NCBI GenBank assembly: GCA_030595125.1
Contig: JAUVDV010000036.1
Location: 1 to 50,644, forward strand
Length of the DNA stretch: 50,644 nt
From: Deltaproteobacteria bacterium
Lineage (GTDB): Bacteria > Myxococcota_A > Polyangia > JAAYKL01
Direction of reading: 5' to 3'
Positions 84-46,983 of the stretch are shown piece after piece. Position 1 is the stretch's first letter, and every line of letters starts with the position of its first letter. The notes under the pieces were generated by a model. The model searched no databases, was not told where the DNA came from, and saw only the letters and a list, made by a program, of their open reading frames with translations. The position numbers and the translations under genes are program-made.

Positions 84-352
84 CCTTCCCCGCATCAAGA
101 AGACCAGGAAGTAGTGACGGGTCCGCAGCTTGCCTTGATCAAACAACTCAAACTCCCTTCGACTATGGCCGAACTGCGGTGCCCTGATTTTTCTCACGCC
201 CGAGCCCGAGATTAGAATCTCCCCTGAGTTCTGCTTGTGATATGATTCAAAATCATCCAAATCGATATGGAGGGGCCAATGATCTTCGAATCAGTCGGAA
301 TCGAAAAAGCCGGGTTCGCCACTTGCAACTAAGCAGCTTGTCGGAGGTTGAG
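84..352. other. Intergenic region upstream of the first lipoprotein gene
   Basis: No convincing gene was found here. An open frame continues upstream of base 353 (from 242), but the predicted signal peptide and a GGAGG at 343-347 place the start of the next gene at 353. The stretch presumably holds its promoter, although no clear -35/-10 pair stands out. Confidence 0.5.
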
Positions 353-1291
353 ATGAGCGCCTTGAGATTCATTTTGGCGATGTTCACAGCGGTATTTTTT
401 CTTGCTTCTTGCAACGGGGGCGGTTCGAACGCGAGCGACGCCTCGATCGACGGCGGCGACACCGATAGCGACACGGATAGTGATTCCGACACCGACGCCG
501 ACGCGGGCGATGACGCTGGCGCGCCAATGATACCTGGAGATTATGACACCCCCACGCCAATGTTCTGGGCGCTTCTAGATGGTGGTACTTTCTTGCAGGG
601 ATCTGAGAGCGCTCTGTCCCCCTCATCCTGGAATGAGACCCCGGCCCATGATGTCACCGTTCCGACATTCGAGATGATGACCACCGAAGCAACAACCTCT
701 CAGTACGCTCAGTGCGTGCTCGCCGAGGTTTGCGCCGAACCATTGGTTGCTCAGGGTGAAAATTCGGGCAAAAACTGCAACTGGCTTTGGTGGGGTCGCG
801 ACGATCACCCTGTGAACTGTGTCAACGCCTACGAGGCCGAGGTGTACTGCGCCTGGATAGACGCTCGTTTGCCCACGGAATCTGAATGGGAGTACGCCGC
901 GAGAAGCGAAGGTAAGGACATCGAGTATCCCTGGGGTGAAGCCGAGCCGACCTGTGACCTTGCTATAATCAGCGCGGGAAATTATCAGTACGGATGTGGA
1001 CTTGGGCACACCTGGCCTGTCAGCAGCAAGCCCTTGGGGAACACGGAGCAGGGTCTGTGCGACATGGGAGGTAATGTCATGGAATGGGTACAGGATTGCT
1101 GGTACGGCAACTACAGCGGGGCGCCGACAGACGGTAGCGCCTGGGTGGTGGGTTCATGTGAAGATAATGTTCTTCGTGGCGGCGGATACAAACACTCGGG
1201 ATCCGGTCTTCGAACACGTAACCGTGCCTACAATCCCTCTTTCGGACGTGGAGACTACATGGGTTTCCGCTGTGCACGTAGCGCTATTTAA
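353..1291 (+). CDS. Lipoprotein with a formylglycine-generating-enzyme (SUMF1/FGE-sulfatase) domain
   Basis: This is a 312-residue predicted lipoprotein. The start at 353 is chosen because GGAGG lies at 343-347 and the protein then begins with a standard signal peptide ending in the lipobox LASC (Cys20). An Asp/Ser/Thr-rich spacer follows (about residues 35-58). The FGE-sulfatase fold covers roughly residues 75-310, recognisable from RLPTESEWEYAAR, YPWG, CDMGGNVMEWVQD and the terminal GFRCA. In true FGE the strand after RGG(S/G)W carries the two copper-binding catalytic cysteines; here the segment reads GGGYKHSGSGLRTR and has none. The protein is therefore more likely a non-catalytic or binding member of the family, displayed on the cell surface. 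Role unknown; the domain call is firm. Confidence 0.9.
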   Translation: MSALRFILAMFTAVFFLASCNGGGSNASDASIDGGDTDSDTDSDSDTDADAGDDAGAPMIPGDYDTPTPMFWALLDGGTFLQGSESALSPSSWNETPAHDVTVPTFEMMTTEATTSQYAQCVLAEVCAEPLVAQGENSGKNCNWLWWGRDDHPVNCVNAYEAEVYCAWIDARLPTESEWEYAARSEGKDIEYPWGEAEPTCDLAIISAGNYQYGCGLGHTWPVSSKPLGNTEQGLCDMGGNVMEWVQDCWYGNYSGAPTDGSAWVVGSCEDNVLRGGGYKHSGSGLRTRNRAYNPSFGRGDYMGFRCARSAI

Positions 1292-29359: not shown

Positions 29360-30253
29360 TCAACCCCGCCAGATGACCCGGCGTTTGTTCCGTGGAGGAA
29401 CTCGATAGAACACTCCGTCGGGTTTGCCGACGGCTATCACGGCACCGACGGTGTACCCCCCTGGAATATCGAAACGTTCCCGCATCTTCCGGTCGCGTAT
29501 CAGCGCCGTCAGGGCATAGCCGTTGAAGCACGCTCCCAGGTCCATGGATTGCGCTGCCAGCAGAATTTCCATCGCCGCCAGATTGCACCCCGCGTTGGCC
29601 AGGTGTGGCAAGCCCGATGAAAAAAGCAGCATTACCGAGGAGGCGTTGTAGAAGAGACGATCATCCTCGCCGGCCAGTGTCCTGGTGAACATCTCGACAA
29701 TCGCCGGCATGCGAAGACGGTATGCGGCAACAGTCTTCCGCCCTACTTTCAGGCCGATGCCGAAACGTACAATGGGGTTGGCGAGTTGGCGCTGGAGCGC
29801 AAGATAATACCTGGAGGTTTCCACTGCGAGTTCTCGCACGGCGTCGCGCCCCTGAAAAACCATGAATCGAATGTTCTGGGAGTTTGTGGAGGTGGGAGCC
29901 CATCGGGCAATGTCGATCAGCTTGTCTACCTGACCCCTCGAAACGGACTCGTCCAGAAATCTCCTGCAACTTCGTCGCTCGATGAAGAGCTTTTTCACGT
30001 CCTCGCGGTCCAGTGACTCCGGGTTCTCGATCTCCACAAATTTCTCCGCCGGTAACTCCGAATGGGAAAGAGCGCTGTCCGCGCAGACTGCCACGCAGTG
30101 CCCGCAACCGATGCATCGACCCGGATTGCTCAGCTGGAGCTCATCGGCCTCCCACGACAGAATCCGTGAAGGACAGGACGCCTCACACGCCCCACAGCGA
30201 GTGCACCTGTCGGAATCAACTGTAATATCGATATCGCCGCTTTTGGAAAACAT
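29360..30253 (-). CDS. Ferredoxin-nitroreductase fusion protein
   Basis: This is a 297-residue protein. Residues 1-62 hold two [4Fe-4S] motifs (CTRCGACEASCP and CIGCGHCVAVC). A flavin-dependent nitroreductase domain (about 85-270) follows, with RRSCRRF at the start, the WAPTSTNSQN FMN-binding loop and the late GACFNGYA segment. Such fusions take electrons from the FeS domain to reduce an unknown substrate. It is the last gene of the 2-oxoacid/NADH operon, 17 bases after the zinc-ribbon gene, so it may share or regulate that electron pool. Confidence 0.92.
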   Translation of the reverse strand: MFSKSGDIDITVDSDRCTRCGACEASCPSRILSWEADELQLSNPGRCIGCGHCVAVCADSALSHSELPAEKFVEIENPESLDREDVKKLFIERRSCRRFLDESVSRGQVDKLIDIARWAPTSTNSQNIRFMVFQGRDAVRELAVETSRYYLALQRQLANPIVRFGIGLKVGRKTVAAYRLRMPAIVEMFTRTLAGEDDRLFYNASSVMLLFSSGLPHLANAGCNLAAMEILLAAQSMDLGACFNGYALTALIRDRKMRERFDIPGGYTVGAVIAVGKPDGVFYRVPPRNKRRVIWRG

Positions 30254-30270
30254 CCCTACTTCTCAAACGG

Positions 30271-30705
30271 TTACATCTGGATTTTCGTCTCGCCAACGTA
30301 CATGCGATCGAGTTGCTCGTCCAGATTCACGATTCGAAGGGAATGCTTCTGGCATCCGATCGTTGGACAGGCCTCCACCTGGCCGCCATCGGGCAGGTTT
30401 ACGGCGAACATTGGGATGTTGCACAGATTGCACTGCTCATCGATGGTCAGCGAAGCGTTGCACTCGGGGCAAAATACTTCGATGACATCTCCTTCATTCA
30501 ACGAAACGTCGCTCTCGTACTCGTGTTTCCCGTAGAACGGGTGGAGATACAGCATTCCCGAATGTCCACCGAGCCTGATCTTGACCGCAATGGCGCGTTC
30601 CCCATCGAATTTTTTGTCTTCGACCATGAGGGAATGCCCGGCGGGGCACGTACCGTTTCCCACCCTGATTCGTCCGACGAGTTTTTCAGGAATTTTTGCG
30701 GTCAT
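30271..30705 (-). CDS. Conserved zinc-ribbon protein of the 2-oxoacid oxidoreductase operon
   Basis: This is a 144-residue protein. ATG at 30705 shares its A with the TGA of the upstream ferredoxin gene (TGATG), giving tight coupling. Eight or nine cysteines form paired knuckles: CPAGH, CPEC, CNLC and CPTIGCQKH. The centre (GERAIAVKIRLGGHSGMLYLHPFYGKHEYE) is beta-rich. The family is not one I can name. Its position suggests a chaperone, assembly factor or small subunit for the neighbouring iron-sulfur complex; this is inference. Confidence 0.8.
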   Translation of the reverse strand: MTAKIPEKLVGRIRVGNGTCPAGHSLMVEDKKFDGERAIAVKIRLGGHSGMLYLHPFYGKHEYESDVSLNEGDVIEVFCPECNASLTIDEQCNLCNIPMFAVNLPDGGQVEACPTIGCQKHSLRIVNLDEQLDRMYVGETKIQM

Positions 30706-31106
30706 CACTTCATCTCCAGTGCGCCGTGTGGGCAGAATTTCACGCATGTGGGATCCCCTCCGCAGAGATCGCACTTGACGGGAACCCCCTCGTTCAGTTC
30801 GAAATGCATGTGCCCGAAGGGACAAGCCGGCTCACAAAGGCCGCAACCGACGCACCTCTCTTCGTCTACTTCTATTGCGCCGGTGAGCTCGTTGCGAACC
30901 AGGGCTTCGGTCGGGCATACCTTGACGCACGCCGCCTCCACACACTGAAGACAGGTCATCTGCATGTACCGCTCGTCACCTACCTTGTAGATGTTGATGC
31001 GTGAACGAGCAAACACGCCTTCGGTGCCCTTGATCATCGAGCACGCCAGCTCACAGGTTCGACAACCGGTGCAGTTTCTCGGAATGACTACAAATGTCTT
31101 TTGCAT
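30705..31106 (-). CDS. Polyferredoxin-type electron transfer subunit, four [4Fe-4S] motifs
   Basis: This is a 133-residue protein. ATG at 31106 is chosen over a longer frame because the canonical N-terminus QKTFVVIPRNCTGCRTCELAC follows directly. The cysteine motifs (CTGCRTCELAC, CLQCVEAACVKVCP, CVGCGLCEPACP, CDLCGGDPTCVKFCP) match the DMSO reductase FeS-subunit/HycB/CooF class, which carries four [4Fe-4S] clusters. There is no twin-Arg or signal sequence, so it is cytoplasmic. It would wire electrons between the oxidoreductase and NADH modules of the same operon. Confidence 0.93.
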   Translation of the reverse strand: MQKTFVVIPRNCTGCRTCELACSMIKGTEGVFARSRINIYKVGDERYMQMTCLQCVEAACVKVCPTEALVRNELTGAIEVDEERCVGCGLCEPACPFGHMHFELNEGVPVKCDLCGGDPTCVKFCPHGALEMK

Positions 31107-31126
31107 TCTCTTGATATCCCCTTGCC

Positions 31127-31879
31127 TCAAGACCCTACCTTGTCGAAATGGGAAGCGAGTTTCTTCTTCTTGCACGCAGAACAGGTCGTGTAGTAGTCGG
31201 CCGGCAGATCGCGGTTTGCGATAGCGTAATCGCGATATTCTTCTGTCAGCACGGGCTCGCCGCAACCTTCGCAGGCCACGAAGTTGAATTTCTTGTCCCA
31301 GATTTCCCGTGTGGTCCGGGTGTCATTCACCTCGATGTGGCCGGTCGGACAAATGGCCGCGCAAGCGCCGCAGCCGATACAGTTTTCAGGGTTCTCGAAG
31401 AATGGCGGCGCGATCTTCTTGTCGTGACCCCTGCCGACGGTTCCGATGGCGTTACAACCCATCCTCTCGCAAGCGCGAACGCACAGGGAGCACATGATGC
31501 ACTTGGAGCCGTCGTCAATCTGCTCGTACCGAACAGAGATTTCGCCGTTCTCCTCGGCCATCCAGCGGATCACATCCGAAGTTGGACAACGGGCCATCAG
31601 GAGGTCGAGTGTCGTCCCGCGCGAACGCCTGACCGCCTCGCTGGAGGTGCTGATCACGAGCCCTTCTTCCACAGGGTAGAGACACGCCGTGACCAGGTTT
31701 CTCCAACCTCCCCAGTCCTTGTGCGTGATTTCGACCATGCAAACCCGGCACGCGCCCACATCGTCGAGAGCCTCGTGATGGCACAAAGTCGGAATGTAGA
31801 TCTCGTTGCGATTTGCAACCTCGAGGATGCTCTCCCCGTCTTTTGCGCTGATTTTTTTTCCGTCAATGTAGATGTACAT
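31127..31879 (-). CDS. NuoG/HydA N-terminal-like [2Fe-2S]/[4Fe-4S] subunit
   Basis: This is a 250-residue protein starting at 31879. The N-terminal [2Fe-2S] domain has Cys33, Cys44, Cys47 and Cys66 (pattern Cx10Cx2Cx18C). The His/Cys-ligated cluster region of NuoG is reduced to RCPTSDVIRW and lacks ligands. A two-cluster ferredoxin domain follows (CIMCSLCVRAC and CIGCGACAAICP), then a C-terminal pair CEGC...CSAC that may bind zinc or another cluster. No H-cluster or molybdopterin domain is present, so it is neither a full hydrogenase nor a formate dehydrogenase. It lies 13 bases after the NuoF-like gene and probably completes a NuoEFG/HydABC-type electron-transfer module. Confidence 0.92.
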   Translation of the reverse strand: MYIYIDGKKISAKDGESILEVANRNEIYIPTLCHHEALDDVGACRVCMVEITHKDWGGWRNLVTACLYPVEEGLVISTSSEAVRRSRGTTLDLLMARCPTSDVIRWMAEENGEISVRYEQIDDGSKCIMCSLCVRACERMGCNAIGTVGRGHDKKIAPPFFENPENCIGCGACAAICPTGHIEVNDTRTTREIWDKKFNFVACEGCGEPVLTEEYRDYAIANRDLPADYYTTCSACKKKKLASHFDKVGS

Positions 31880-31892
31880 AATCGCCCTTACC

Positions 31893-33776
31893 CTAGTTTG
31901 TAACCACGGCGTCGAACTTGCATACCAGACGACAGGCTCCGCACTGTGTGCACTTGTCCTGGTCGATAATATGAACCTGCTTCTTTTCACCGGAGATCGC
32001 GTCTGGCGGGCAAGCCTTCTTGCACACCAGGCACCCGGTACACTTGTCGGGATCAATGGTAAACGTGGTGATATCCCTACAGACGCCTGCCGGGCACCGC
32101 TTGTCGTTTACATGCGCCTCGTACTCTTCCCTGAAATTCTTCAGGGTGGACAGCACCGGGTTGGGAGCCGATTTTCCGAGCCCGCACAGAGACGACACCT
32201 GAATTTCTTTCCCGAGTCGCTGGATCTTCTCCAGGTCTTGCGGCTCACCCTCCCCTCTCGACAGTTTATCGAGCATGGCGTGGAGCTGATATACGCCCTC
32301 ACGACAGGGGACACACTTTCCGCAGGACTCCTCCATCAGGAATTTGAGGAAGTACTTTGCAACGTCAACCATGCAGGTGCGATCGTCCATCACGATCATT
32401 CCGCCGGAACCCATCATGGAGCCCGCCTTCGCGAGCGCATCGAAATCGACGGGGAGATCGAGATGGTCCTCCCCGAGGCATCCGCCCGACGGGCCGCCTG
32501 TCTGCACGGCCTTGAAGGGTCGCCCATCGATTATTCCGCCGCCCATCCCGAAGACCACATCGCGCAAACTGGTGCCCATGGGGACCTCGATGAGACCGGT
32601 GTTGACCACCTTTCCCACCAGGCAGAAGGCTTTTGTCCCGGGTGACTTCTCAGTGCCCCTCGACGTAAACCAATCGCTGCCCTCGTTGATGATTGACGGC
32701 ACACAGGCAAATGTCTCCACGTTGTTGAGGACTGTCGGCTTGTCGCGGAACCCGCGCTGCACCGATCGAACGTACTTGGCCCGAGGTTCGCCCACGCTCC
32801 CCTCGATGCTCCGCATCAACGCCGTGGACTCGCCGCAGACGAAAGCCCCGCCACCGCGCGCCACGCTAATATCGAAATCGAGATCGCTGCCGAGTATCTT
32901 TTTGCCGAGCAATCCGTTCTCCTCGCAGGTCTTCACTGCCAGGCTGAGCCTCTCGACAGCTCTTGGATACTCGTGCCGCACGTAAATGAAGCCCGTGCTG
33001 GAACCGACCGCGTGGGCGCAGATGATCATTCCCTCGATGACGCGGTAGGGATCGCCCTCCATGATGCAACAATCCATGAAAGCGCCGGGATCGCCCTCGT
33101 CGCCGTTGCAGATGACGAAACGCTCATCACCCTCGGCGCTGACGCATGACCGCCATTTTCTTCCGGTGGGAAAACCTCCGCCTCCGCGACCGCGCAGACC
33201 GGATTTCTCGACCTCGGAGATCACCTGGTCGGGATCCATCTTCAGCGCCTTGGCCAGTGAAGAGAACCCACCGGACGCGACGTAGGAATCGAGGCTGTCT
33301 GCAGCCACCGATCCACACCCCTCGAGCGCCACGAGCTCCTGCCCCTTGTAAAAGGGAATATCCGCCCTGCCCTTGAGCCGCTTCTTGTCTTCGGGGTTCT
33401 TGTACAGGAGCTTCTCGACCACCTGTCCGCCCGCGAGGGTCTTTTCCACAATATCTTTGACGGCGGAAACCTTGACCCCGGTGTACAGGATATCATCTGG
33501 AAGGATGTGAACCAGCGGCCCGATCTGGCAAAAACCCTGGCACCCCGTGAGCGAAACAAACAGCGGGTCTTTCTCTTTTCCACATGGCTCAAGCTCGACT
33601 TGCACGGGCAACCCGGCCTTTTTGGACTCCTTGACCAGCGCGTCGTAAACCTCGAACGCTCCGAGCGCCGCGCAACCGGTGCCCGAGCACACGCGCACAT
33701 GTGTCTTCACATTTTCATTGGCCTTGTGTAGCGCTTTTCGACGTGCCTCAAGCTCTTTGCGGTTTGCTATTCCCAT
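31893..33776 (-). CDS. NuoF/HydB-like NAD(P)H-binding flavoprotein subunit
   Basis: This is a 627-residue protein with the domain order of HydB/HndC subunits of electron-bifurcating complexes. A thioredoxin-like [2Fe-2S] domain (CSGTGC...GCQGFC, about 28-85) precedes the FMN/NAD(H) domain (GLRGRGGGGFPTGRKW; NGDEGDPGAFMDC), a SLBB segment, the [4Fe-4S] motif ESCGKCVPCREG and a C-terminal two-cluster ferredoxin (CTGCLVCKKACP, CTQCGACRLVC). It would exchange hydride with NAD(P) and pass electrons to FeS clusters. No membrane arm of complex I is encoded nearby. It is 10 bases downstream of the NuoE-like gene. Confidence 0.96.
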   Translation of the reverse strand: MGIANRKELEARRKALHKANENVKTHVRVCSGTGCAALGAFEVYDALVKESKKAGLPVQVELEPCGKEKDPLFVSLTGCQGFCQIGPLVHILPDDILYTGVKVSAVKDIVEKTLAGGQVVEKLLYKNPEDKKRLKGRADIPFYKGQELVALEGCGSVAADSLDSYVASGGFSSLAKALKMDPDQVISEVEKSGLRGRGGGGFPTGRKWRSCVSAEGDERFVICNGDEGDPGAFMDCCIMEGDPYRVIEGMIICAHAVGSSTGFIYVRHEYPRAVERLSLAVKTCEENGLLGKKILGSDLDFDISVARGGGAFVCGESTALMRSIEGSVGEPRAKYVRSVQRGFRDKPTVLNNVETFACVPSIINEGSDWFTSRGTEKSPGTKAFCLVGKVVNTGLIEVPMGTSLRDVVFGMGGGIIDGRPFKAVQTGGPSGGCLGEDHLDLPVDFDALAKAGSMMGSGGMIVMDDRTCMVDVAKYFLKFLMEESCGKCVPCREGVYQLHAMLDKLSRGEGEPQDLEKIQRLGKEIQVSSLCGLGKSAPNPVLSTLKNFREEYEAHVNDKRCPAGVCRDITTFTIDPDKCTGCLVCKKACPPDAISGEKKQVHIIDQDKCTQCGACRLVCKFDAVVTN

Positions 33777-33786
33777 TGCGCTTATC

Positions 33787-34260
33787 TCAACCTTCCTCGA
33801 TAATTTTCACGATTGTCCCGGGCTTGACGTCGGCGATGTACCGCGTATTCGCGATGACCACCGGCGCCAGCGCGCACGCACCGACACAGTTGACCACCTC
33901 GACGGTGTACTTCATGTCCGGCGTGGTCTCACCGGGGCCCACGCCGAGACCGATGCGCAAATCCTCTACCACCACCGGAGCTCCTCGAATATGACAACTC
34001 GTGCCAAGGCAGACCTTGACGATGGTCTCTCCTCGGGGGACCAGGCTGAACGCCTTGTAGAATGTGGCCACGGAAAACGCCGAGTTCAGAGGCACATCCA
34101 GGTATTCTGCTGCGGCCCTGATCGCTTCCCCGGGAAGATAGTGAATTTCGCTCTGGAGATCCTGCAACAAGTGAACGAGATGACTTCGCTCACCCTTTTC
34201 GAACCTGGCCAGCACGGCGCCGACTTGCTTCATGTCTACCGCGGGAGCAGCATTCATCAT
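33787..34260 (-). CDS. NuoE/HydC-like [2Fe-2S] subunit
   Basis: This is a 157-residue thioredoxin-like protein. Helical N-terminus (LVHLLQDLQSEIHYLP) and the four-cysteine [2Fe-2S] site CLGTSC...CVGAC match NuoE and HydC/HndA. It partners the NuoF-like subunit in NAD(P)H oxidation. The ATG overlaps the stop of the preceding 2-oxoacid oxidoreductase gamma gene by 4 bases (34257-34260), directly coupling translation of the two enzyme modules. Confidence 0.95.
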   Translation of the reverse strand: MMNAAPAVDMKQVGAVLARFEKGERSHLVHLLQDLQSEIHYLPGEAIRAAAEYLDVPLNSAFSVATFYKAFSLVPRGETIVKVCLGTSCHIRGAPVVVEDLRIGLGVGPGETTPDMKYTVEVVNCVGACALAPVVIANTRYIADVKPGTIVKIIEEG

Positions 34261-34797
34261 GCGCCTCCCTTCATTTTCTCACCCTCCGCATACCCCGCCT
34301 CGAAAGCCGCGACATTGGCCGGGATGAACTTGGCCTTGGACGCGAATTCCTTTTCGATCTTGGCGATGGTCACGCTCTTATCCACGATACCGGACCACCC
34401 CACGTATGCGCCGAGCATCACCAGGTTTGCCGCGCGAGCCGTGCCCGCCTTCTTGGCGACATCGTTTGCGGCGATGTTGAGCACCGTGCAATCGTCCCTG
34501 TCGGCGGTGATCGGAATGAGCGACGTGTTCACAACGATGAGGCCGCCCTTCTTGACCCTCGGACCGAACTTCTCCAGGGAGGGTTGATTCATCACCAGCA
34601 ACGCGACCGGTTCGATGATGTAAGGCGATCCCACCGGATCGTCCGATACGCATACGGTCACGTTTGCGGTGCCGCCACGCATCTCCGGACCATAGGAAGG
34701 AAGCCAGCTGACCTCCTTGCCGTCCTCCATTGCCGCGTATGCCAGGAGTTTCCCGGAAAGCAGCATGCCCTGCCCTCCGAACCCCGCCATAAGGACC

Positions 34798-34811
<14 letters not shown>
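34257..34811 (-). CDS. 2-oxoacid:ferredoxin oxidoreductase gamma subunit
   Basis: This is a 184-residue protein with the gamma-subunit signature AGFGGQGMLLSGKLLAYAA at its N-terminus and SYGPEMRGGTANVTV. GGAGGG before ATG 34811 fixes the start, which overlaps the TPP subunit's stop by 14 bases. In four-subunit 2-oxoacid oxidoreductases this subunit contacts CoA and the alpha subunit. It immediately precedes, with a 4-base overlap, the NuoE-like gene. Confidence 0.95.
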
Positions 34812-35561
<750 letters not shown>

Positions 35562-35565
<4 letters not shown>

Positions 35566-36644
35566 TTCCCGCTCCTTGAGCCGCCGACCTTCGCGATTGA
35601 CGCCCTGAGCTGCTCGACCACATCCTCAACAGAGGGAATGATCCCGCCCGCCTTGCCATAAAAATCGATAGGCACGGTTCCCTCCGCGGCGAACTGCACA
35701 TCGAGCAGCATCTGCCCCATATTCATCTCCACGCAAAGAACGCGCTTGCTCCTGTCGATGAGCTCGCGCAGGGGTTTGTACGGAAACGGCTTGGCCGTGA
35801 TGGGTCGGAACAATCCGATGTTGATGCCCTCACCCTTGAGCACGTCGATCGCCGTCTTGCAGATGCGAGCCATCATTCCAAAACCGGTCAAAAGAACATC
35901 GAAGGGCTCCTCGGTGTTGTAGTACTCCCACCGCTGCTCGTTCTCGGTAATGAGCTCGAACTTGGCCTTGAGTTTTTCGTTGTGATCATTGAGTTTCTGC
36001 GCGTCGAGATACAACGAGTTCACGATGCGGCGCTCGCGCCCCTTGCAGCCGGTGAGTGCGTAGTCGGTCGGCCCGAGCGGCTCACCCACCTTGACCTCCG
36101 GAAACTCTACCGGCTCCATCATCTGGCCGATCATCCCGTCGCCGATGAGTATGACCGGGTTGCGGTATTTCTCCGCGAGTTCGAACGCAACGAGCATCAG
36201 GTCAACCGCCTCCTGCACGGAAGCCGGCGCGAGCACTATGAGGTTGAAGTCACCGTGACCCGTGCCCTTGGTGGCCTGAAGATAGTCGCCCTGGGCCGGA
36301 AGAATGCCGCCGAGACCGGGACCGGCGCGCATGATGTTGACGAGCACGCACGGCAGCTCGCATGCGGCGATGTAGGACAGACCCTCCGCCATGAGGCTGA
36401 TGCCGGGCGATGACGATGTGGTCAGAACACGAACACCGACTCCTGCGGCGCCGTAGATCATGTTGCTGGCCGCAACCTCGCTCTCCGCCTGAAGATAGAG
36501 CCCGCCCACCTCCGGCAACCGCCTGGACAGGTACTCGGGCACCTCGCTCTGGGGGGTGATCGGATATCCGAAGAAATGAATGCAACCGGCGCGAATGGCA
36601 GCCTCGCCGATTGCTTCGTTTCCTTTCATCAATACCTTTGCCAT
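35562..36644 (-). CDS. vorB: 2-oxoacid:ferredoxin oxidoreductase alpha subunit, VorB type (3-methyl-2-oxobutanoate)
   Basis: This is a 360-residue protein with the characteristic N-terminus AKVLMKGNEAIGEAAIRAG and GYPITPQSEVPEYL, QAESEVAASNMIYGAA, the TSSSPGISLMAEG segment and IGDGMIGQMMEP. This resembles proteins annotated as 3-methyl-2-oxobutanoate dehydrogenase subunit VorB, so a valine-derived oxoacid is the likely substrate; 2-oxoglutarate remains possible because KOR and VOR are difficult to separate from sequence alone. It lies 15 bases downstream of the small ferredoxin subunit gene. Confidence 0.93.
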
Positions 36645-36659
36645 GATCGGGTCCTTTCC

Positions 36660-36893
36660 CTAGTACGCGAAGAACTCGTATTGCGTTCCCTCGATATACA
36701 CCTCGAGGGCGACCTCCGGGCATGCTATGGCGCACATCCGGCACCCTAAGCAGCGCGATTGGTCAACCGCCGATGCAAACTTGTAACCCTTTGCGTTTAG
36801 GTCACTGGACATCTTCATGATCTCCTGCGGGCAGGCGTCGTTGCAGCGCTCACAACCCTTGCAACGCTCGACCATTACCTGAATCTTGGGCAT
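36660..36893 (-). CDS. 2-oxoacid:ferredoxin oxidoreductase delta (ferredoxin) subunit
   Basis: This is a 77-residue protein. GAGGAG lies 7 bases upstream of ATG 36893. Two [4Fe-4S] motifs (CKGCERCNDACP and CLGCRMCAIACP) carry electrons out of the TPP subunit to external ferredoxin or, here, probably to the adjacent NADH module. It starts 10 bases after the stop of the P-loop ATPase gene. Confidence 0.95.
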   Translation of the reverse strand: MPKIQVMVERCKGCERCNDACPQEIMKMSSDLNAKGYKFASAVDQSRCLGCRMCAIACPEVALEVYIEGTQYEFFAY

Positions 36894-36903
36894 TCCACAC
36901 TCC

Positions 36904-37689
36904 TCACGGTCGAAAGATGGGTTTCGTTCGTGCGGCCGGCATGTTTTCCGGTCGCTCTTCCGGACTATCCTGTTTTTTCCCGGTTCGCAACCAGGGCGGA
37001 AGCATGTTTCTCTCGATAGCAAAAATCGGCACGTCGAGCGCCAGGATCTCGGGCGCTTGCGCAAGCGCTCCCATGGCCGTTACGAACTCCACGGGGACAC
37101 CGCTGACCTTTGAAACTTTCGCGGCGAGATCGTACCCCTCGACGATGACATCGGCGGTGGTCTGATCCACCAGGTGCGAGTTGACGATGAGCCCCGACAC
37201 CTTCAATCTGGACGACTCCTCGATCATCTTCATCATCTTGACGCACCCCTCAACCGTGTCGGTGAAGGGCCGCCGGGAGTTGATGACCTGCAGAAGCGAG
37301 TACGGACCATCCGCCAGAGCCTGGCGAAAAGACGAGAGCATCTTGGCGCCCACATCGTCTCCCCCCACGTCGAAGATAGAGAAATCCTCGCCGGCGGGCT
37401 CGAGCATCGCCTTGATTCGGGGAACCACGATGGGCAGATCCGCGTACTGTTGCTCACCGGGAGGGATCACCACCTCGATGCCGGCGGCCTCCATGAGCGC
37501 CCCCGCCTCGCGGCTGCGAAAATACGGATTGACGATGTCCAGATCGGCGATGACGACCTTCTTGCCGACTGCGGCGAGCCCGAGCGCCAGGTTGACCGCT
37601 ATCTCGGTCTTTCCCGAGCCATAGTTCCCGACGATCATCACCAATCGCTCGGAAGGCTCCCATAAGACAGCGTTTTTATCCACGGCCAT
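36904..37689 (-). CDS. P-loop ATPase of the CobQ/MinD/ParA class at the head of the operon
   Basis: This is a 261-residue protein. AGGAGG is placed 8 bases before ATG 37689. The deviant Walker A GNYGSGKTE (about 21-29) is followed by VVIADLDIVNPYFRSRE and FSIFDVGGDDVG, typical of SIMIBI-class ATPases that assist metal centre or iron-sulfur assembly or partitioning. Similar genes adjoin 2-oxoacid oxidoreductase operons in other anaerobes, which suggests a maturation or assembly role; not demonstrated. The C-terminal tail is Pro/Lys rich. Confidence 0.85.
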   Translation of the reverse strand: MAVDKNAVLWEPSERLVMIVGNYGSGKTEIAVNLALGLAAVGKKVVIADLDIVNPYFRSREAGALMEAAGIEVVIPPGEQQYADLPIVVPRIKAMLEPAGEDFSIFDVGGDDVGAKMLSSFRQALADGPYSLLQVINSRRPFTDTVEGCVKMMKMIEESSRLKVSGLIVNSHLVDQTTADVIVEGYDLAAKVSKVSGVPVEFVTAMGALAQAPEILALDVPIFAIERNMLPPWLRTGKKQDSPEERPENMPAARTKPIFRP

Positions 37690-44990: not shown

Positions 44991-45401
44991 ATGAAAGTAA
45001 AGAAGATCAGTCATATCGGCATTTCGGTTCCCAGCATCGATGATTACATCGGTTTTTTCGAGGGCTTTCTCGACCTCGAATTCACCGGCACAGAGGTCGT
45101 CGAGGATCAGAAGGTGAAGGTCGCGTTCCTCACCATCGGCGAGTCCCGGATAGAGCTGCTGGAGCCCACGGCCCCCGACAGCCCGGTTCAAAAATACATC
45201 GACAAGAACGACGGCAAACCCAGAATTCACCACGTGGCCTATGAGGTAGAGGATCTGGAAGCCGCGCTCGAAGAGGCCAAAGAGGCAGGTATCAAGCTCA
45301 TCGATGAGAAGCCTCGCATCGGCGCGGGAGGCGTGCGCATAGCCTTCATTCATCCCAGAGCGAGCGCGGGCGTTCTCACCGAGCTCTGCGAACAACACTG
45401 A
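44991..45401 (+). CDS. mce: Methylmalonyl-CoA epimerase
   Basis: This is a 136-residue VOC-fold enzyme, the usual length. KISHIGISVPSIDDYIGFF, the strand IELLEP and HHVAYEVEDLEAALEEAKEAGIKLIDEKPRIGAGG with IAFIHP and GVLTELCE provide the metal ligands (His, Gln/Glu, His, Glu). It interconverts (S)- and (R)-methylmalonyl-CoA. The start is preceded by GGGAGAG. It is 22 bases upstream of the carboxyltransferase gene. Confidence 0.95.
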   Translation: MKVKKISHIGISVPSIDDYIGFFEGFLDLEFTGTEVVEDQKVKVAFLTIGESRIELLEPTAPDSPVQKYIDKNDGKPRIHHVAYEVEDLEAALEEAKEAGIKLIDEKPRIGAGGVRIAFIHPRASAGVLTELCEQH

Positions 45402-45423
45402 CACCCATAGCGGAGATTCTTTT

Positions 45424-46983
45424 ATGACCAACAAGCGCCTTCAAGCGAGTATCGAGGATCTCAGATCCAGACTGGAAAACGCCGAGAACCATGCGCCGGC
45501 GGCCAAGATCGAGAAACGACACGAAAAGGGCAAGATGACGGCCCGGGAGCGCGTCCTGAAACTCCTGGACGACGGGTCCTTTCACGAGACCGGCGCCCTC
45601 ATGACCCACCGATGCACCGACTTCGGCATGGAAAAGAAGAAGATCCCCGGTGACGGCGTAATCACGGGCTGGGGCACCATCGACGATCGCCAGGTTTTTG
45701 TCTTCTCTCAGGACTTCATGGACTTCGGCGGCGCCCTCGGCGAAGTCTTCGCGCAGAAGATTGTCAATGTGATGGACATGGCCATGGCCGCCCGCTGCCC
45801 CATTATCGGGCTCAACGACTCCGGCGGCGCGCGAATCCAGGAGGGCGTACTCTCCCTGGGCGGTTACGGCGATATCTTCTTTCGAAATACCATGGCGTCG
45901 GGCTTCATCCCCCAGATATCGGCCATCATGGGGCCGTGCGCTGGCGGCGCGGTCTACTCGCCGGCCATAACGGATTTCACCTTCATGGTTCGCGAGACGA
46001 GCTACATGTTCATCACCGGCCCAAACGTGATCAAGGCGGCCACGGGCGAGGAGATCTCCCCGGAGGATCTCGGCGGCGCCAGGTCCCACGGGTCCAAGTC
46101 CGGCGTGTGTCACTTCGAATACAAGTCGGAGGAAAGCTGCCTCGAAGGAATCAGGGAGCTGTTGAGCTACCTCCCTCGCAGCTGCGAGGAACGCACGCCC
46201 AAGATCGAATTCGATCCGGAACAGGATCCGCAAGCCGACAAGATCCTCGATCTCATCCCGGAGAATCTTAAAGGCGTCTACGACATGCGCAAGCTCGTCA
46301 AGGTAATCTCGGACGACGGCGCCTGGTTCGAGGTGCTCAAGAGTTTCGCGCGCAACTTCATTACCGGATTCGCCCGCGTCGGCGGACGGTCGGTGGGTAT
46401 CCTGGGCAACAACCCCATGTTCTCGGCCGGGTGCCTGGACATCAACGCCTCGGACAAGGCCGCGCGGTTCGTTCGGTTCTGCGACTGCTTCAACATCCCC
46501 ATGATCACCTTCGTGGATGTGCCGGGTTTCCTGCCGGGAACGGTCCAGGAACACGCCGGCATCATCAGACACGGCGCCAAGCTCCTGTTCGCGTACTCCG
46601 AGGCGAGCGTCCCCATGATCACGGTAATCGTACGCAAGGCCTACGGCGGCGCCTACGACGCCATGTGCTCCAAGCATCTGGGATGCGACATCAACTTCGC
46701 CTGGCCCAACGCCGAGATCGCCGTGATGGGCGCGGCGGGGGCCATGAACATCATCGGGCGCAAGGAGATCGCGGCGGCCGACGATCCGGAAGCAAAGAAG
46801 GCCGAGCTGGTCGAGGAATACGTAGGCAACTTCTCCAACCCCTACAAGGCCGCAGAGCTGGGCTACATCGACGCGGTGATCGAACCGACGGAGACCCGAG
46901 CCCGCCTCATCGACGCCCTTTCCACCATCGCCGGCAAGAAGATCGAACGGCCGCGCAAGAAACACGGCAACATTCCATTGTAA
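45424..46983 (+). CDS. Acyl-CoA carboxylase/methylmalonyl-CoA decarboxylase carboxyltransferase subunit
   Basis: This is a 519-residue protein of the PccB/MmdA type. N- and C-terminal crotonase-like halves carry LNDSGGARIQEGVLSLGGYG, IMGPCAGGAVYSPAITDF, the second CoA site DVPGFLPGTVQEHAGIIRHGAK and VIVRKAYGGAYDAMCSK. It transfers the carboxyl group between carboxybiotin and propionyl-CoA. Biotin carboxylase or membrane decarboxylase subunits are not in the window, so carboxylase versus sodium-pumping decarboxylase cannot be decided. It forms an operon with mce. Confidence 0.95.
   Translation: MTNKRLQASIEDLRSRLENAENHAPAAKIEKRHEKGKMTARERVLKLLDDGSFHETGALMTHRCTDFGMEKKKIPGDGVITGWGTIDDRQVFVFSQDFMDFGGALGEVFAQKIVNVMDMAMAARCPIIGLNDSGGARIQEGVLSLGGYGDIFFRNTMASGFIPQISAIMGPCAGGAVYSPAITDFTFMVRETSYMFITGPNVIKAATGEEISPEDLGGARSHGSKSGVCHFEYKSEESCLEGIRELLSYLPRSCEERTPKIEFDPEQDPQADKILDLIPENLKGVYDMRKLVKVISDDGAWFEVLKSFARNFITGFARVGGRSVGILGNNPMFSAGCLDINASDKAARFVRFCDCFNIPMITFVDVPGFLPGTVQEHAGIIRHGAKLLFAYSEASVPMITVIVRKAYGGAYDAMCSKHLGCDINFAWPNAEIAVMGAAGAMNIIGRKEIAAADDPEAKKAELVEEYVGNFSNPYKAAELGYIDAVIEPTETRARLIDALSTIAGKKIERPRKKHGNIPL

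What the first reader, a model, noticed from the sequence alone, without database searches (positions are those of the whole stretch)
29360..37689. An 11-gene operon joins a VOR/KOR 2-oxoacid:ferredoxin oxidoreductase to a NuoEF/HydBC-type NAD(P)H module
What is seen: eleven minus-strand genes without gaps above about 20 bases, including a 4-base overlap between the oxidoreductase gamma gene and the NuoE-like gene. They encode the four VOR-type subunits, NuoE- and NuoF-like subunits with HydB-style extra ferredoxin domains, a NuoG/HydA N-terminal-like subunit, a four-cluster polyferredoxin, a zinc-ribbon protein, an Fd-nitroreductase and a P-loop ATPase. What is known: HydBC/NuoEF modules are core parts of electron-bifurcating complexes. 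Inference: the whole set forms one complex that oxidises a branched-chain 2-oxoacid with NAD(P), perhaps by confurcation, without a hydrogenase. This would be a different pairing from the known HydABC enzymes.
Basis: partly seen in the sequence, partly recalled or inferred. Interest (0 to 1): 0.8.

Follow-up and report, generated by a model that had tools for sequence, protein, structure and literature searches.

The report
Keto-acid oxidase with bifurcating NADH module
A run of adjacent bacterial genes appears to build an enzyme that breaks down keto acids and splits the released electrons between two carriers; it is a new version of a recently proposed enzyme family, and relatives have repeatedly swapped or dropped its NADH part.

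Summary
In detail: eleven minus-strand genes, 29360-37689, no gap above 20 bases. The pairing is real and old: searching the class by VorB alone, 26 of 30 readable VorB operons have a Bfu gene directly after VorC (20 NuoE, 3 NuoF, 3 BfuA), and the nine-gene core recurs in four families outside the class. It is not categorically new. The NuoE/NuoF/NuoG-like proteins meet the sequence tests of the Bfu (HydABC-like) bifurcating family, in which a pyruvate version, Por-Bfu, was predicted in 2022. This one differs: its oxidase is VorB-type, not PorA-type, and it carries a WorS-like four-cluster subunit as in the aldehyde enzyme Wor-Bfu. I saw this combination in none of nine literature searches. 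Best reading: 2-oxoacid + CoA oxidation feeds electrons through PFd and BfuA to FMN, where they split between NAD+ and ferredoxin. Activity and substrate are untested. Against an obligatory eleven-subunit complex: relatives lost NuoE, then NuoF, while keeping VOR-BfuA-PFd, and the zinc protein and nitroreductase occur only in some. NuoEF in this operon has several origins, some shared with the same family's Por-Bfu.

The parts
36904..37689 (-). ATPase (P-loop, CbiA/ParA-like, 261 aa), first gene; travels with VOR, also in relatives without Bfu genes
   Evidence: Pfam CbiA 3.1e-6; with stand-alone VOR in L195 and L203
36660..36893 (-). VorD, two-[4Fe-4S] ferredoxin subunit (77 aa)
   Evidence: Fer4 domains; order conserved
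35562..36644 (-). VorB, alpha-type subunit of the 2-oxoacid oxidoreductase (360 aa)
   Evidence: NCBIfam PRK07119 VorB 509.7 bits, cut-off 399; POR_N, PFOR_II
34798..35565 (-). VorA, thiamine-diphosphate beta-type subunit (255 aa)
   Evidence: TPP_enzyme_C; its CxxC and two further Cys align with Cys of solved 2-oxoacid oxidoreductase beta chains such as 6n2n_B
34257..34811 (-). VorC, gamma-type subunit (184 aa)
   Evidence: Pfam POR 3.7e-40
33787..34260 (-). NuoE/BfuC-like [2Fe-2S] subunit (157 aa)
   Evidence: 2Fe-2S_thioredx 1.4e-41; four Cys in 34 of 34 VOR-operon NuoE rows
31893..33776 (-). NuoF/BfuB-like FMN/NAD subunit with N-terminal [2Fe-2S] and C-terminal 2x[4Fe-4S] domains (627 aa)
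   Evidence: Pfam; best PDB match bifurcating HydB 8a6t_B 743.5 bits; cluster ligands
31127..31879 (-). BfuA/NuoG-N-like subunit: [2Fe-2S], 2x[4Fe-4S] and a C-terminal Cys4 site (250 aa)
   Evidence: Invariant Cys in 15 sequences; best PDB match 9mqx_A 257.3 bits over nearly the full length
30705..31106 (-). PFd, four-[4Fe-4S] ferredoxin like WorS (133 aa)
   Evidence: 16 Cys invariant in 38 of 38 rows, 37 distinct; best PDB match 9mqx_E; NCBIfam PadI N-terminus 108.6 bits
30271..30705 (-). ZnR, small Cys-rich beta protein of unknown family (144 aa); accessory, only in some relatives
   Evidence: no Pfam or NCBIfam match; model pLDDT 72.1 without a PDB fold match at E 0.5 or better
29360..30253 (-). 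NTR, 2x[4Fe-4S] + nitroreductase protein (297 aa); accessory, only in some relatives
   Evidence: Pfam Nitroreductase 1.7e-22 + Fer4

Best explanation
The core (VorD-VorB-VorA-VorC, NuoE, NuoF, BfuA, PFd) encodes one electron-bifurcating 2-oxoacid oxidoreductase, here called VOR-Bfu. VorBAC would oxidise a 2-oxoacid with CoA at thiamine diphosphate. Electrons would leave through the VOR clusters to the four-cluster PFd, go on to the two [4Fe-4S] and one [2Fe-2S] clusters of BfuA, and reach FMN in the NuoF-like subunit, where they are shared between NAD+ and (through the NuoE cluster and the further clusters of NuoF) ferredoxin. NuoEF is a plug that evolution exchanges or removes; VOR with BfuA and PFd is the steadier part. 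Shown here: gene content, order, cluster ligands, conservation, tree conflicts and losses. Inferred: that the proteins form one complex, the electron path, bifurcation itself, a branched-chain substrate, and the direction (oxidation favoured).
For: Unit: in the class sample found by VorB alone (33 of 289 genomes, 34 places), 30 are readable past VorC: 20 go on with NuoE (and NuoF where the contig allows), 3 with NuoF, 3 with BfuA, 4 with no Bfu gene. The nine-gene core recurs in four families outside the class. NuoEF lies between VorC and BfuA-PFd, so it is sandwiched. Bifurcating type: 20 Cys/His positions incl. H555 (H525 in A. mobile NiFe-Bfu) are invariant in all 23 complete VOR-operon NuoF (22 operons plus the first copy of G006); the 2022 paper says this His is absent from non-bifurcating homologues. 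BfuA and PFd: their best solved relatives are chains A and E of one entry, 9mqx, whose chain B is second best for NuoF. VOR-PFd contact: the NCBIfam PadI profile (beta subunit of NADH-dependent phenylglyoxylate dehydrogenase) matches PFd at its positions 5-135 and VorA at 228-363 (both far under the model's own cut-off), i.e. one natural protein joins the two kinds of domain. BfuA of most VOR and of WOR-type operons, which have PFd, form one side of the BfuA tree (99/98) against POR, where no PFd was seen. NuoEF exchange with Por-Bfu of the same family: f8 VOR and f8 POR NuoF form one 100/100 clade; second-type VOR NuoF (L048, L083, L084, second copy of G006) and f1 POR NuoF form one 100/99 clade; one clade for all VOR NuoF is rejected, p-AU 7.5e-58. 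Genome: no PF00676 (E1_dh) match at 95% completeness, with 13 of 14 control genomes ringing.
Against: No protein, transcript or activity data. In one lineage of the same family NuoE is gone (G010, G004, G012) and then NuoF too (G005, G013), while VorDBAC, BfuA and PFd stay; in G050 the operon lacks NuoEF and PFd, and G355 keeps PFd with a 143-aa remnant-like protein: the NADH module is dispensable or borrowed. Four of 30 readable VorB operons lack Bfu genes altogether. Of 20 stretches taken around PFd matches in the phylum, 7 show PFd with no VOR gene, so PFd is not tied to VOR alone. Three f8 VOR operons and G050 have BfuA on the POR side of the tree, and that side also holds unlabelled loci with a weak PFd-like neighbour. 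Position 506 (C476 of NiFe-Bfu) is Ser here and A/T/R/S/C/V elsewhere. A low-potential 2-oxoacid could reduce ferredoxin and NAD+ without bifurcation; the family's authors say the benefit is not clear. No complex was modelled (the tool takes single proteins).
Confidence: 0.68

Rival explanations
1. Two enzymes in one transcript: an ordinary VOR that reduces free ferredoxin through VorD, and a separate NuoEF-BfuA-PFd enzyme that exchanges electrons between ferredoxin, NAD(H) and an unseen partner.
For: VorD gives VOR a normal exit to ferredoxin. Stand-alone ATPase-VorDBAC operons exist (L195, L203). NuoEF is lost in several relatives. PFd relatives also occur without VOR (7 of 20 stretches).
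Against: When NuoEF is lost, BfuA and PFd stay with VOR in G005 and G013. NuoEF sits between VorC and BfuA. A PFd-like domain is fused to a VorA-like domain in the PadI profile. No other third-substrate enzyme lies in the operon, and flanking genes are not conserved.
Confidence: 0.15
2. A plain, non-bifurcating NAD-linked 2-oxoacid dehydrogenase: NuoEF only passes electrons to NAD+, as PadH does in phenylglyoxylate dehydrogenase.
For: Three genera keep NuoF without a NuoE in the operon, and every NuoE match in G010 and G012 lies beside or inside another NuoF, as do those of G004; this would leave only the FMN-NAD path. 2-Oxoacid oxidation does not need bifurcation to reduce NAD+. A KOR-type cluster of the same genome (L068) has a GltD/PadH-like flavoprotein instead of NuoEF.
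Against: The B1-B5 ligand positions stay invariant, also in NuoF of the NuoE-less operons; non-bifurcating homologues lack B2-B5. The window has NuoE.
Confidence: 0.12
3. The same complex running mainly in reverse: NADH and reduced ferredoxin are confurcated to carboxylate an acyl-CoA to a 2-oxoacid for amino-acid synthesis.
For: The Por-Bfu authors suggest this direction for pyruvate synthesis in Dehalococcoides and syntrophs, though elsewhere they discuss oxidation. The genome has no PF00676 match but several ferredoxin-type oxidoreductases.
Against: No neighbouring amino-acid synthesis genes are conserved. NAD(H) at about -280 mV is a poor donor for a couple near -500 mV (values, the latter for pyruvate).
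Confidence: 0.2

Closest known systems
Por-Bfu (predicted, Schut et al. 2022, PMC9304861; section 5 read, sections 4 and 6 first parts)
   Same: Four-subunit thiamine 2-oxoacid oxidoreductase beside BfuABC; Type 2 BfuA; NuoE-NuoF-BfuA at the end. The window's own genome also has a POR-type cluster at C134 (best NCBIfam match PorA_Arch, 493.7 bits, under its 550 cut-off).
   Different: Window VorB is not PorA-like (PorA_Arch 100.8 bits; VorB 509.7 against 399). No PFd or ATPase was seen in the POR clusters read here (some end with the contig).
Wor-Bfu / Class IV WOR (AmWOR1, WorABCSL; PMC13328260, passages only; PDB 9mqx, taken by me to be this enzyme, not stated by a call)
   Same: BfuABC plus a four-cluster WorS-like subunit; BfuA and PFd have their best solved relatives in 9mqx; most VOR and the WOR-type BfuA lie on one side of the tree.
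   Different: No tungsten aldehyde oxidoreductase (WorL) in the operon; VorDBAC takes its place.
NADH-dependent phenylglyoxylate dehydrogenase (PadEFGHI; NCBIfam models; role of PadH recalled)
   Same: 2-oxoacid oxidoreductase linked to NAD+; four-cluster ferredoxin domain joined to the thiamine beta subunit.
   Different: NAD+ is reached by a GltD-like flavoprotein there (recalled), by NuoEF-BfuA here; the PFd-like domain is a separate gene here.
HydABC bifurcating [FeFe]-hydrogenase
   Same: NuoF-like subunit is closest in the PDB to HydB 8a6t_B (743.5 bits).
   Different: No H-cluster domain; BfuA is 250 aa and ends in a Cys4 site.
Stand-alone VOR (ATPase-VorDBAC)
   Same: Same first five genes in L195 and L203; VorB over the same NCBIfam cut-off (524.8 bits for L195).
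   Different: No NuoEF, BfuA or PFd within the 9 kb read downstream.

Membership tests
Bfu (HydABC-like bifurcating) family, as defined by Schut et al. 2022 | BfuB domains: FMN-binding 51K, SLBB, NADH_4Fe-4S, extra 4Fe-4S ferredoxin domains | tested here: met
   Pfam, (SLBB 23.9 bits, just under its cut-off of 27; the paper uses InterPro domains)
Bfu (HydABC-like bifurcating) family, as defined by Schut et al. 2022 | BfuC thioredoxin-like [2Fe-2S] subunit | tested here: met
   four Cys in 34 of 34 VOR-operon NuoE rows
Bfu (HydABC-like bifurcating) family, as defined by Schut et al. 2022 | His ligand of cluster B2 (H525) and Cys C438, C531, C536 | tested here: met
   H555, C468, C561, C566 of the window; invariant in 23 complete VOR-operon NuoF; correspondence by equal spacing to the residues quoted
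Bfu (HydABC-like bifurcating) family, as defined by Schut et al. 2022 | Further B2 ligand C476, Thr in about two thirds of the family | tested here: inconclusive
   Ser506 in the window; S/A/T/R/C/V in relatives, POR too
Bfu (HydABC-like bifurcating) family, as defined by Schut et al. 2022 | Type 2 BfuA: A1, A2 and A4 clusters only, A3 and A5 absent | tested here: met
   Invariant C33/44/47/66 and eight further Cys at 127-177, no conserved Cys between 66 and 127; mapping to cluster names is my reading
Bfu (HydABC-like bifurcating) family, as defined by Schut et al. 2022 | Coupled reduction of NAD+ and ferredoxin | not testable with these tools
   needs enzyme assay
Por-Bfu | Pyruvate-type (PorA) oxidoreductase subunits | tested here: not met
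   PorA_Arch 100.8 bits, cut-off 550; VorB 509.7, cut-off 399
Wor-Bfu (Class IV WOR) | WorL tungsten aldehyde oxidoreductase subunit | tested here: not met
   No AFOR domain among the eleven proteins
Wor-Bfu (Class IV WOR) | WorS, four [4Fe-4S] clusters | tested here: met
   16 Cys in 38 of 38 PFd rows, 37 distinct; 9mqx_E best match
VOR (NCBIfam PRK07119) | VorB over the curated cut-off | tested here: met
   the only match over the cut-off in the genome
VOR (NCBIfam PRK07119) | Branched-chain 2-oxoacid as substrate | not testable with these tools
   Family name, plus elimination: other alpha subunits of the genome match PorA best (C134) or PRK08659 2-oxoacid alpha over its cut-off (C173, C140); C195 and C8 are Ior-like by length only, not scanned
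Phenylglyoxylate dehydrogenase PadEFGHI | PadH-type FAD/NAD flavoprotein | tested here: not met
   None among the eleven genes
HydABC hydrogenase | H-cluster domain (PF02906) | tested here: not met
   Not in the window's BfuA; the genome's single match is on contig C16

The most novel reading that the evidence does not exclude
VOR-Bfu is a nanowire-fed keto-acid bifurcator with an exchangeable plug: PFd subunits chain several VOR units onto one BfuA, and the NuoEF plug has been copied between the VOR and POR operons of one lineage, kept in tandem (G006) and finally shed, giving a living series from bifurcating (NuoE+NuoF) through NuoF-only to NADH-free forms.
Probability: 0.3. Interest if true: 0.66.

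Novelty: new variant of a known kind. Interest (0 to 1): 0.5.

Why it matters
It widens the set of third substrates of Bfu enzymes and links the Por-Bfu and Wor-Bfu designs. The nested loss of NuoE and then NuoF within one family gives a natural comparison for an open question named by the family's authors: what the NADH branch brings to an oxidation that is already low-potential. The repeated exchange of NuoEF between two keto-acid operons is evidence from evolution that the module works as an interchangeable plug.

Tried and rejected
Categorically new complex: rejected after the Bfu paper showed Por-Bfu and Wor-Bfu. Hydrogenase-linked NuoEF: not found, within the limits stated. Substrate from neighbours: no conserved catabolic neighbour; the methylmalonyl-CoA epimerase and carboxylase-like genes at 44991-46983 (named by eye) are 7-8 kb away on the other strand and were not followed up. 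ZnR fold: model pLDDT 72.1, best PDB match E 0.54, so no assignment. A lost NuoE moved elsewhere: in G004, G005, G010 and G012 each NuoE match lies beside or inside another NuoF (G004:C202 checked). In G013 the one on C483 is followed by a NuoF start at the contig end, and the one on C564 shows no NuoF match in the 567 bases left: unresolved. Literature: nine searches gave no VOR-Bfu; six papers were opened: PMC9304861 (abstract, all of section 5, first parts of sections 4 and 6, passages), and PMC13328260, PMC5109826, PMC11201294, PMC7382037, PMC12174285 (matching passages only); the rest were seen as listings.

My own slips: row L050 was given in a wrong frame (right ORF used). In one search labels of L039, L048 (WOR?) and L086 (KOR) came from truncated contigs, and L049 is labelled WOR though it is the tail of a VOR operon; so the 49-row side of that tree holds 25 VOR, 20 WOR-type and 4 unlabelled rows. 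'WOR' there means a PFd score and spacing, no WorL was read. In one search, 20 short or weak NuoF rows were dropped (listed there). In one search, 4 unreadable rows were left out of the counts of change, and L189 and L192 also for NuoF. In one search the NuoF/NuoE order of L210 is an artefact of the chosen start. One search counted L080, a repeat of L042, among the 38 PFd rows. A note says nine bifurcating-type NuoF in the genome; eight is right.


Full report
What is there. I read the junctions: none exceeds 20 bases and four pairs overlap. Order: ATPase, VorD, VorB, VorA, VorC, NuoE, NuoF, BfuA (NuoG-N-like), PFd (four-cluster ferredoxin), ZnR, NTR.

How far it is conserved. A search of 59 relatives with the BfuA-like protein gave matches in 27 (E <= 1e-20), and reading the surrounding stretches showed the same order in many. 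To avoid choosing by the answer, I searched the class with VorB alone: 33 of 289 genomes, 34 places (E <= 1e-90). Thirty of the 34 can be read past VorC; 20 continue with NuoE (and NuoF where the contig allows), 3 with NuoF and no NuoE, 3 with BfuA and neither, 4 with no Bfu gene; 4 are cut by contig ends. A phylum search with PFd (28 of 377 genomes) was followed at 20 places: 11 show VOR genes, 7 of them the full nine-gene set and from four families outside the class (f40, f54, f62, f65); 2 show BfuA and PFd on cut contigs (one with NuoEF); 7 show PFd without VOR. The flanks of 21 VOR loci share almost nothing.

What family it belongs to. Schut et al. 2022 (PMC9304861) define the Bfu family: HydB-like BfuB with five clusters, BfuC, and a variable BfuA that brings electrons from a third substrate. 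They predict Por-Bfu in Dehalococcoides and syntrophic Proteobacteria. The window's NuoF has the family's ligand set. With equal spacing to the residues they quote, H555, C468, C561 and C566 stand for H525, C438, C531 and C536 of the A. mobile enzyme, and 20 Cys/His positions are invariant in the 23 complete VOR-operon NuoF compared (which Cys serves which cluster is my assignment). Position 506 (C476) is Ser here and varies in relatives, in POR operons as well. BfuA has a [2Fe-2S] set, two [4Fe-4S] sets, no conserved Cys between them for a further cluster and a C-terminal Cys4 site, which fits their Type 2. The nearest solved proteins are HydB 8a6t_B for NuoF and, for BfuA and PFd, two chains of one entry, 9mqx. 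I take 9mqx to be the aldehyde enzyme AmWOR1 from its chain set; the title was not shown. PMC13328260 (passages) says that in AmWOR1 three WorSL form a cluster wire into one WorABC plug.

How it differs. VorB is over the NCBIfam VorB cut-off (509.7 against 399) and far under the PorA one (100.8 against 550). The genome has its own POR-type Bfu cluster at C134 and a KOR-type cluster at C173 that has a GltD/PadH-like flavoprotein with a BfuA-like and a ferredoxin protein but no NuoEF. VOR-Bfu thus combines a Por-like catalytic idea with the Wor-like bridge. PFd resembles the N-terminus of PadI (108.6 bits), and VorA matches a later part of the same PadI profile (42.2 bits; cut-off 700), so in phenylglyoxylate dehydrogenase the two kinds of domain are one protein; this is the best sequence hint that PFd docks on VorA.

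What the trees say. The BfuA tree (103 rows; bootstrap not settled) puts 25 VOR BfuA on one side with 20 WOR-type BfuA (99/98), apart from the 21 POR BfuA; three f8 operons and G050 are exceptions. The NuoF trees do not group VOR NuoF: f8 VOR and f8 POR NuoF form one clade (100/100), and a second type of VOR NuoF (L048 of f1, second copy of G006 of f1, and L083, L084) forms a 100/99 clade with f1 POR NuoF. One clade for all VOR NuoF is rejected (p-AU 7.5e-58; 6.7e-100 without the second G006 copy; I had seen the tree before the test). G006 carries both types in one operon: contig C9 ends inside the second NuoF and C109 begins in it, with an exact 127-base overlap; a repeat shared with its POR copy could give the same overlap. 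In the VorB trees the losses nest: G008 has NuoE and NuoF; G010, G004 and G012 lack NuoE; G005 and G013, inside that group, lack NuoF too (on the phylum-wide tree four changes suffice for each gene, stand-alone VOR counted). No closer NuoF is elsewhere in G005 or G013: the best is 55% identical and lies in a POR-type Bfu cluster in both. NuoF of the NuoE-less operons keeps the 20 positions. In G355 a 143-aa protein that looks to me like the last ferredoxin part of NuoF joined to the Cys4 end of BfuA stands before PFd.

Reading. I favour one enzyme in which VOR, PFd and BfuA form the input arm and NuoEF the NAD+/ferredoxin plug, with 2-oxoacid oxidation splitting electrons between NAD+ and ferredoxin. 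Wor-Bfu is reported to reduce neither acceptor alone, and the authors extend this to Por-Bfu as a hypothesis. Why lineages shed the plug is open; they may borrow NuoEF from Por-Bfu (the tree shows the parts are exchangeable over time) or hand electrons to ferredoxin only. The branched-chain substrate is plausible: it is the family name; the genome's other alpha subunits match pyruvate-type (C134) or PRK08659-type (C173, C140) models, or are Ior-like by length (C195, C8, not scanned); and no PF00676 E1 component was found (an E1 of another family was not sought). No test was made.

Verdict. Observation confirmed, interpretation partly supported, new variant of a known kind. None of nine literature searches (open-access library only) showed this combination; the supplement of the 2022 paper, where it could be listed under Por, was not readable.

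Noticed in passing
G000 contigs C18, C32, C81, C134, C138, C143, C179, C200 (L002-L008, L060-L066): Eight NuoF of the long bifurcating type in one genome (the PF01512 hits on C9 and C196 look like RnfC), tied to Nfn-, formate-dehydrogenase-, glutamate-synthase-, POR- and VOR-like partners among others.
   Followed up: partly
L065:3936-5909 (G000:C179): A BfuA-like N-terminus fused to aldehyde ferredoxin oxidoreductase domains (AFOR_C 5.6e-97) in one 658-aa protein next to NuoE-NuoF: a one-piece Wor-Bfu-like arrangement.
   Followed up: no
L061:15712-18564 (G000:C138): A 951-aa protein joins BfuA-like clusters, a molybdopterin oxidoreductase and a C-terminal NuoE-type domain.
   Followed up: no
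L068:6251-11151 (G000:C173): KOR-type subunits followed by a GltD/PadH-like flavoprotein, a BfuA-like protein and a ferredoxin, without NuoEF.
   Followed up: partly
L215:9535-9963 (G355): 143-aa protein that looks like the NuoF C-terminal ferredoxin part joined to the BfuA Cys4 end, between VorC and PFd.
   Followed up: no
L066 (G000:C32) and L114:9989-13843: BfuA-like protein with a FlpD domain beside a 689-aa Fer2_4/Pyr_redox_2 (SoxA-like) protein and NuoEF; in a Bacillota contig (L114) the same parts are one 1284-aa protein: third substrate unknown.
   Followed up: partly
window 44991-46983: Methylmalonyl-CoA epimerase-like and acyl-CoA carboxylase-like genes on the other strand (named by eye).
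   Followed up: no
G000:C9 and C196 (L059, L067): Two Rnf-like gene groups (by eye).
   Followed up: no
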